A stretch of DNA of 64,000 bases, taken from Terriglobia bacterium. GTDB lineage: Bacteria > Acidobacteriota > Terriglobia > Terriglobales > SCQP01. The notes beneath the pieces were generated by a model. The model searched no databases. It saw only the letters and a program-made list of their open reading frames with translations, and was not told the origin of the DNA. The position numbers were made by a program, and so were the translations under genes. Position 1 is the stretch's first letter. Every line of letters begins with the position of its first letter. This document shows positions 32,692 through 33,002 of the stretch, piece after piece. The stretch covers positions 147,364 through 211,363 of the forward strand of contig JAJPKR010000061.1 of assembly GCA_021323595.1 (NCBI GenBank), given 5' to 3'.

Positions 32692-32745
32692 GCGCAGGAG
32701 CGCCTGCCTCGTCAAGAAAAAAATGCAAAATCGGGAAGATTTTTC

Positions 32746-32775
32746 TTGACTCCGCGGAGGCGGACGCCCTATATC
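32746..32775 (+). promoter_or_regulatory. sigma-70-type promoter of the Lys-rich peptide unit
   Basis: TTGACT (32746-32751) and TATATC (32770-32775) are separated by 18 bases. This is the best two-element promoter in the window. Transcription would begin near 32782. Confidence 0.7.
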
Positions 32776-32827
32776 TTGTGTGACTTCGTCAGCGGCCCTA
32801 AATGTCGGGGCGCGAGGAGGTCACAGT

Positions 32828-32848
32828 CCCCCGCGTTCGCGCTGGGGG
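32828..32848 (+). promoter_or_regulatory. UUCG-capped hairpin next to the ribosome-binding site
   Basis: CCCCC-GCG pairs with CGC-GGGGG across a TTCG loop, with one bulged T at 32843. The stem ends two bases before AGGAGG (32851-32856). A UUCG-capped stem here could stabilise the mRNA or tune access to the ribosome-binding site. Confidence 0.6.
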
Positions 32849-32863
32849 AAAGGAGGAAAGAAT

Positions 32864-32917
32864 ATGGCTGCGAAGAAAAAGGCTGCCGCGAAAAAGCCCG
32901 CGAAGAAGAAGAAGTAG
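32864..32917 (+). CDS. 17-residue Lys/Ala-rich micro-peptide
   Basis: ATG at 32864 opens a 17-codon frame translating to MAAKKKAAAKKPAKKKK, followed by tandem TAG codons. AGGAGG lies 7 bases before the ATG. Nine lysines, six alanines and one proline give a composition like the tails of histone H1-like bacterial proteins. A strong promoter, a hairpin leader and a perfect terminator enclose it, and no other gene shares the transcript. That packaging argues for a real, highly expressed product, either a nucleic-acid-binding peptide or a small RNA with a peptide inside it. The function is not known; the length is too short for family assignment. Confidence 0.65.
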   Translation: MAAKKKAAAKKPAKKKK

Positions 32918-32945
32918 TAGCGAATTTCCGAAGCAACCGAACCTG

Positions 32946-32979
32946 AAAGGATGCGCCGTCGCGGCGCATCCTTTTTTTT
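32946..32979 (+). terminator. intrinsic terminator of the Lys-rich peptide unit
   Basis: A perfect 13-bp stem (AAAGGATGCGCCG and its complement) encloses a 3-base TCG loop, followed by eight T residues (32972-32979). It is the clearest Rho-independent terminator in the window and ends a transcript of about 195 bases. Confidence 0.92.
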
Positions 32980-33002
32980 GCGGCGCGCGCGCAGCGGCGC
33001 GC

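What the first reader, a model, noticed from the sequence alone, without database searches (positions are those of the whole stretch)
32746..32979. Self-contained transcription unit for a 17-residue Lys/Ala peptide
Within about 235 bases there is a good sigma-70 promoter (TTGACT-N18-TATATC), a UUCG-capped hairpin, a perfect AGGAGG, a 17-codon frame rich in Lys and Ala with tandem TAG stops, and a 13-bp terminator with eight T residues. Every expression element is better than at most neighbouring genes, yet the product is smaller than gene callers accept. It may be a nucleic-acid-binding histone-tail-like peptide, or a structured small RNA that also codes.
Basis: partly seen in the sequence, partly recalled or inferred. 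Interest (0 to 1): 0.78.

Follow-up and report, generated by a model that had tools for sequence, protein, structure and literature searches.

The report
Conserved lysine-rich micropeptide gene in Acidobacteriota
A 200-base stretch of this acidobacterial genome is a real, self-contained gene for a 17-residue, strongly positively charged peptide, one of two related micro-genes that occur across its order and beyond but match no family library searched; the sister gene has lost its peptide several times while its RNA was kept, which hints that the RNA matters too.

Summary
Promoter, two leader hairpins, AGGAGG, a 17-codon Lys/Ala frame and a terminator lie in the purE-SMR gap; no other Lys-rich frame exists in the 64 kb window. 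The unit is found in 11 of 14 genomes of the family (7 of 7 near-complete ones), once per genome. Frame, start and stop are kept and changes are mostly synonymous. It belongs to an order-wide gene family with two types. Type A (the window's) is in 68 of 200 order genomes, type B in 171 of 200; similar units occur in other acidobacterial classes. Nearly all encode Lys/Ala/Pro/Thr peptides of 12-27 residues; two distant relatives encode 69-127-residue H1-like proteins behind similar promoters. No Pfam, NCBIfam, Rfam or PDB match. Unexpectedly, the type-B peptide was lost at least four times while promoter, 5' hairpin, GGGAG box, GGCAA motifs and terminator stayed, often still upstream of rsmE. 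So type-B RNA probably has a peptide-independent role. For type A every copy read keeps the frame. Most likely: a highly expressed polycationic micropeptide that binds nucleic acid like a free histone-H1 tail, made from a transcript of a dual-function-RNA lineage. Binding, expression and RNA targets are untested.

The parts
32711..32721 (.). Left arm GTCAAGAAAAA of an 11-bp perfect inverted repeat with TTTTTCTTGAC (32740-32750), which overlaps the -35 box; A/T-rich, UP-element-like or operator-like
   Evidence: sequence; GTCAAG(A)AAA arm present at this place in most of the 11 family loci; function inferred only
32746..32775 (+). Promoter: TTGACT - 18 nt - TATATC; the family consensus runs on into TATATCTTG
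   Evidence: CTTGAC-N18/19-TATATSTTG exactly once in 11 of 14 family genomes, 0 in the reversed-pattern control; invariant columns in alignment A2
32779..32825 (+).
   Evidence: all 11 family leaders fold with a stem near the 5' end, median z -2.9
32828..32848 (+). Leader hairpin 2, UUCG-capped, directly before the SD
   Evidence: a second hairpin of different sequence before the SD in several family members, absent in others
32851..32856 (+). Shine-Dalgarno AGGAGG; AAGGAGG invariant in the family
   Evidence: alignment A2
32864..32917 (+). Micropeptide frame MAAKKKAAAKKPAKKKK, 17 aa, 9 Lys, no acidic residue
   Evidence: frame, start and stop kept in 11 family genomes with whole-codon length changes; 24 synonymous vs 8 nonsynonymous codon differences in family pairs of equal length, about 23% synonymous expected
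32918..32920 (+). Second, tandem TAG stop (not conserved in relatives)
   Evidence: relatives have one stop
32946..32979 (+). Intrinsic terminator AAAGGATGCGCCG-TCG-CGGCGCATCCTTTTTTTT
   Evidence: stem GGATGCGC/GCGCATCC with T-run in 9 of 11 family members (GGGTGCGC/GCGCATCC in G011); G003 has GCGTGCGC/GCGCACGC

Best explanation
The interval is a genuine single-gene transcription unit (about 32782-32979) whose main product is a 17-residue polycation. It is the 'type A' member of an old family of acidobacterial micropeptide genes, which also has a type-B paralogue elsewhere in the same genome (G000:C52:29919-30118). Proposed mechanism: a strong sigma-70 promoter with an A/T-rich upstream region gives a short mRNA; leader hairpins protect its 5' end and keep the SD open; it is terminated by its own hairpin; the peptide, net charge about +9 with Ala/Pro spacers, binds nucleic acid (DNA, RNA, perhaps polyphosphate) electrostatically, like a detached histone-H1 or Hc-type tail or a genetically encoded polyamine. 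Shown here: unit, conservation, coding signature, two types, distribution. Inferred: actual transcription and translation, abundance, nucleic-acid binding. The transcript lineage probably also has RNA-level function, supported by conservation for type B only.
For: Elements in place and nothing else in the gap. Present in 11 of 14 family genomes, 7 of 7 near-complete, one copy each, next to purE in the family members read (purD in G003) while the downstream gene changes (SMR, rplU-rpmA-obg, atp genes). Coding selection: 24 syn vs 8 nonsyn in the family; 329 vs 304 in all type-A pairs against about 23% synonymous expected. Type A in 68/200 and type B in 171/200 order genomes, usually one each. 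Specificity control: of 18 exact promoter matches among 84,980 species genomes, 8 of 8 acidobacterial ones carry the KA frame and 0 of 10 others do. Same kind of unit in other acidobacterial families, some as tandem pairs; in G254 and G216 a similar promoter precedes 127- and 69-residue Lys-repeat H1-like proteins.
Against: No expression data. Peptide sequence is low-complexity and its length drifts (12-27 aa), so no specific fold or partner is implied. The type-B frame can be lost repeatedly, so at least the type-B peptide is dispensable. No known family matches. The three HU/IHF-like proteins of this genome carry no long Lys/Ala tail, so 'detached tail' is by analogy only. The paralogue detector selected on composition, so the composition of the wider set is partly by construction.
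Confidence: 0.55

Rival explanations
1. The RNA is the main functional product: a small regulatory RNA with its own promoter and terminator that in most lineages also encodes a peptide (dual-function RNA). In type B, GGCAA(A/C) motifs and the GGGAG box would be binding sites for an RNA-binding protein or pairing sites.
For: Type-B units in genera g12, g14, g20 and three g9 genomes lack any KA frame but keep promoter, 5' hairpin, GGGAG box and terminator; 17 of 20 still sit upstream of rsmE like 21 of 47 coding copies, so they are the same locus; RpoB tree needs 5 label changes, at least 4 forced by well-supported branches; GGCAA 54 times in 20 RNAs vs 9.8 +/- 2.9 shuffled, and 48 vs 10.5 +/- 2.8 in the 3' UTRs of 54 coding copies; element invariant in six g12 species with diverged flanks.
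Against: For type A, the window's type, every copy read keeps the frame with a coding signature; GGCAA is not a feature of family type-A units; upstream of rsmE the RNA might be kept only as that gene's promoter and leader, though the three g9 copies have no rsmE nearby; related sequences inflate the motif counts.
Confidence: 0.25
2. The peptide is a ribosome-associated basic peptide, working like bTHX or mycobacterial bL37.
For: Small, basic; neighbours rplU-rpmA-obg in several family genomes and rsmE for many type-B copies.
Against: Sequence is repetitive and length-variable, unlike ribosomal proteins; no PDB sequence match; downstream ribosomal genes are not constant, and in the window the next gene is a convergent SMR transporter.
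Confidence: 0.1
3. The frame is an attenuation leader peptide (Lys codons plus terminator) controlling a downstream gene.
For: Lys-codon-rich short frame followed by a terminator; type B is often upstream of rsmE.
Against: In the window the next gene is on the other strand; downstream genes differ among relatives; no antiterminator alternative was seen in the predicted fold; ORF-less copies keep the terminator.
Confidence: 0.04
4. Chance assembly of motifs without function.
For: The consensus scan does not list the promoter or the terminator.
Against: Conservation in 11 family genomes and across the order.
Confidence: 0.01

Closest known systems
Bacterial histone H1-like proteins (chlamydial Hc1/Hc2, Pseudomonas AlgP)
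   Same: Lys/Ala/Pro-rich low-complexity polycations; length varies by repeat units (Hc2 size variation, PMC2848022; AlgP, PMC9239181); two acidobacterial relatives behind similar promoters are 69-127 aa Lys-repeat proteins
   Different: 12-27 residues instead of more than 100; no Pfam or NCBIfam match; own mini transcription unit; nucleic-acid binding untested
Dual-function small RNAs (VcdRP of Vibrio cholerae, PMC8672173; RyhB/RyhP, PMC5331693)
   Same: Short transcript with its own promoter and intrinsic terminator and one very small frame; type B shows conservation without the frame
   Different: Here the coding part is the widespread state and is lost repeatedly; no target or Hfq-type site tested; no Rfam family matches
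Small basic ribosomal proteins (bTHX, mycobacterial bL37; from general knowledge)
   Same: About 20-30 aa, strongly basic
   Different: No sequence match in PDB; repetitive, drifting sequence

Membership tests
Bacterial H1-like proteins (Hc/AlgP type) | Lys/Ala(/Pro)-rich, low-complexity polycation | tested here: met
   about 52% Lys and 30% Ala over 77 paralogues, a set partly selected on composition; window peptide 9 Lys, 6 Ala, 1 Pro of 17
Bacterial H1-like proteins (Hc/AlgP type) | Match to a curated family model | tested here: not met
Bacterial H1-like proteins (Hc/AlgP type) | Length of about 100 aa or more | tested here: not met
   17 aa here, 12-27 aa in nearly all relatives; 69 and 127 aa in G216 and G254 only
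Bacterial H1-like proteins (Hc/AlgP type) | Binds and condenses DNA | not testable with these tools
   needs peptide and DNA
Dual-function small RNA | Independent short transcription unit (own promoter and terminator) | tested here: met
   sequence level only
Dual-function small RNA | Frame under coding selection | tested here: met
Dual-function small RNA | RNA-level function separate from the peptide | tested here: inconclusive
   type B: supported by repeated ORF loss with RNA kept; type A: no ORF-less copy seen
Dual-function small RNA | Regulates targets by pairing or protein titration | not tested
   no target search made
Known Rfam families | Covariance-model match | tested here: not met
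   no match at the curated scores for window, type-A and coding type-B loci, and none at E<=0.1 for ORF-less type-B loci; weak overlaps are below gathering scores
Attenuation leader peptide | Co-directional gene behind the terminator, conserved | tested here: not met
   convergent SMR gene in the window; different genes in relatives
Type I toxin peptide | Hydrophobic membrane-spanning peptide | tested here: not met
   no large hydrophobic or aromatic residue in the peptide beyond the start Met

The most novel reading that the evidence does not exclude
Types A and B are an ancient pair of dual-function RNAs of Acidobacteriota: each transcript is a regulatory RNA (hairpin, GGGAG box, GGCAA repeats in type B) and an mRNA for an H1-tail-like micropeptide, and in type B the peptide has been shed at least four times, turning an mRNA into a non-coding RNA at the same locus.
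Probability: 0.4. Interest if true: 0.85.

Novelty: new variant of a known kind. Interest (0 to 1): 0.72.

Why it matters
It is a widespread, apparently undescribed gene family too small for standard gene callers, in one of the commonest soil phyla, with a conserved strong expression cassette. It would be among the smallest H1-like polycations, and the type-B series offers a natural experiment: the same locus with and without its peptide in related species. That makes two open questions directly testable: what free polycationic micropeptides do in bacteria, and how an mRNA becomes a non-coding RNA.

Tried and rejected
Consensus promoter/terminator scan: uninformative here. Rfam at gathering and relaxed thresholds: only sub-threshold overlaps, ftsZ-DE 35 bits against 72 required, on the minus strand at the terminator. 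Pfam, NCBIfam and PDB: no hit. Literature: nine searches found no description of such peptides or RNAs in Acidobacteria. RNAalifold on the type-B alignment gave no pairs because MAFFT does not align the drifting hairpins; replaced by per-sequence fold tests, so covariation was seen by eye but not counted formally. First RpoB tree contained antisense frames for six rows; rebuilt with a motif check. HU-tail idea: HU proteins of this genome have no Lys/Ala tail. Hits to the KA-coding part alone were treated as H1-like background, not as units. The genomes searched are unnamed in the tools; the two families of the order are known only as f1 and f2.

Full report
What is there. Window 32692-33002 is the gap between purE (+, ends 32691) and an SMR-type transporter gene on the minus strand. 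Inside it lie, in order, an 11-bp inverted repeat whose right arm overlaps the -35 box (32711-32721 / 32740-32750), TTGACT-N18-TATATC (32746-32775), a leader with two strong hairpins (32779-32825, 32828-32848), AGGAGG (32851-32856), ATG-16 codons-TAG-TAG (32864-32920) and an intrinsic terminator (32946-32979). The predicted transcript folds 4.7 sd better than dinucleotide shuffles. It holds the only Lys-rich start-to-stop frame in the 64 kb on either strand.

Conservation in the family. A DNA search over 41 relatives found the unit at 75-76% identity over its length in three genomes and in part in seven or more others. The pattern CTTGAC-N18/19-TATATSTTG occurs exactly once in 11 of 14 family genomes, including 7 of 7 that are near complete, and never in the reversed-pattern control. 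Every one has AAGGAGG and a 16-22-aa frame of Lys/Ala/Pro/Thr. The alignment shows -35, -10 plus TTG, SD, ATG, the Lys codons and the terminator stem as the conserved blocks, with whole-codon gaps in the frame and free gaps in the leader and 3' UTR. Among family pairs of equal length, codon differences are 24 synonymous to 8 nonsynonymous, none at second positions. The unit lies directly 3' of purE in the members read (in G003 the gene upstream is purD), while the gene behind it varies: rplU-rpmA-obg in several, atp genes in G001, a protease-like gene in G003, SMR in the window. So it is an independent gene, not part of an operon with its downstream neighbour.

Specificity control. A stricter promoter pattern was run over 84,980 species genomes: 18 matches. 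All eight in acidobacterial records carry the KA frame behind the promoter; none of the ten others does.

A wider family with two types. A sequence model of the family units (R1) found units throughout the order, and showed that family genomes carry a second, different unit. Type A (window type): -10 region (t/a)ATATCTTG, a true GGAGG. Type B: TTGACA-N-TCTATACATTC, GGGAGAATAG in SD position, terminator GGGGACGC..GCGTCCCC. The window's genome has both: type A in the window and type B at G000:C52:29919-30118. With type-specific models, type B is in 171 of 200 order genomes (166 of 192 good ones, 56 of 57 genera) and type A in 68 of 200 (64 of 192, 36 of 57 genera), nearly always one match each. 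Peptides range from MATKKKAKKKKH (12 aa) to about 25 aa. In other acidobacterial families outside the class, similar units exist: f57 and f66 genomes carry both A-like (CCCTATATATTGGG) and B-like (CTCTATATTCG plus GGGGACGCC..GGCGTCCCC terminator) units, and f25, f59, f30 and f63 genomes carry tandem pairs or single copies. In G254 a similar promoter precedes a 127-residue frame of Lys/Arg/Thr/Ala repeats, and in G216 a 69-residue PAAKK-repeat protein, which links the micropeptides to H1-like proteins.

Loss of the peptide, retention of the RNA (type B). Some type-B matches end before the frame. Reading them showed no KA frame: in g12, g14, g20 and three g9 genomes the promoter, a 5' hairpin, the GGGAG(A/C)(A/G) box and the terminator are present, but the start codon is gone, in G153 by what reads as ATG to ACG. 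In six g12 species with diverged flanks the stretch TGGGAGCGCAGGCAAACGCAACC..AGGCAAAGCA..GGCAACACA is nearly invariant. GGCAA occurs 54 times in 20 ORF-less RNAs against 9.8 +/- 2.9 in shuffles, and 48 times in the first 60 nt of 3' UTR of 54 coding copies against 10.5 +/- 2.8; the sequences are related, so these are not independent counts. Of the ORF-less copies, 17 of 20 lie upstream of rsmE in the same orientation, as do 21 of 47 coding copies, so they are orthologous loci. On an RpoB tree the ORF-less state needs five changes, at least four on well-supported branches. Retention after repeated loss is evidence for a role of the RNA or, where rsmE follows, of its promoter and leader; the three g9 cases have no rsmE nearby. 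Leaders of all classes start with a stem within 16 nt of the predicted start; median fold z is -2.9 (type A, family), -1.1 (type A, rest of the order), -2.2 (type B coding) and -1.9 (type B ORF-less).

Interpretation. For the window's locus the simplest reading is a micropeptide gene built for expression, whose product is a polycation without hydrophobic or acidic residues. From composition and from the longer relatives, the likely activity is electrostatic binding of nucleic acid, like a free H1/Hc tail; this is inference. The alternative that the RNA matters as much or more is real for type B and open for type A. Ribosome association is possible in view of rplU and rsmE neighbours but has no direct support. 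Attenuation, type I toxin and chance are disfavoured.

Limits. Everything is sequence-based; there are no expression data. E-values from the shortened calibration are rough. The frame detector used composition, so composition statistics of the wide set are partly circular, but model R1 was built from family units only and still led to KA frames across the order.

Noticed in passing
G000:C52:29919-30118 (locus L072): Second, paralogous micropeptide unit (type B, MAKATKKPAKKAAKKTAKKKK) in the window's own genome.
   Followed up: yes
L202-L206, L209, L210, L212-L218, L220, L221, L224, L225, L228, L232-L234, L236, L237, L239: Type-B units that kept promoter, 5' hairpin, GGGAG box, GGCAA repeats and terminator but have no peptide frame; most still upstream of rsmE.
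   Followed up: partly
L171, L173, L176, L179: In other acidobacterial classes two KA micropeptide frames stand in tandem, sometimes identical (L179: MAKKTAKKATKKAAKKR twice).
   Followed up: no
L175 (G254) and L180 (G216): A similar promoter precedes long H1-like Lys-repeat proteins (127 and 69 aa) instead of a micropeptide.
   Followed up: no
window 32711-32721 and 32740-32750: Perfect 11-bp inverted repeat GTCAAGAAAAA/TTTTTCTTGAC around the -35 box, similar in most family members; could be an operator, an UP element or a divergent -35.
   Followed up: partly
f2 type-A units, e.g. L053, L063, L064, L086 3' UTR and L055, L058 leader: An AGGGA(A/G/T)A element lies either before the SD or behind the frame in 17 of 19 type-A units of the wider order; the type-B SD box resembles it.
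   Followed up: partly
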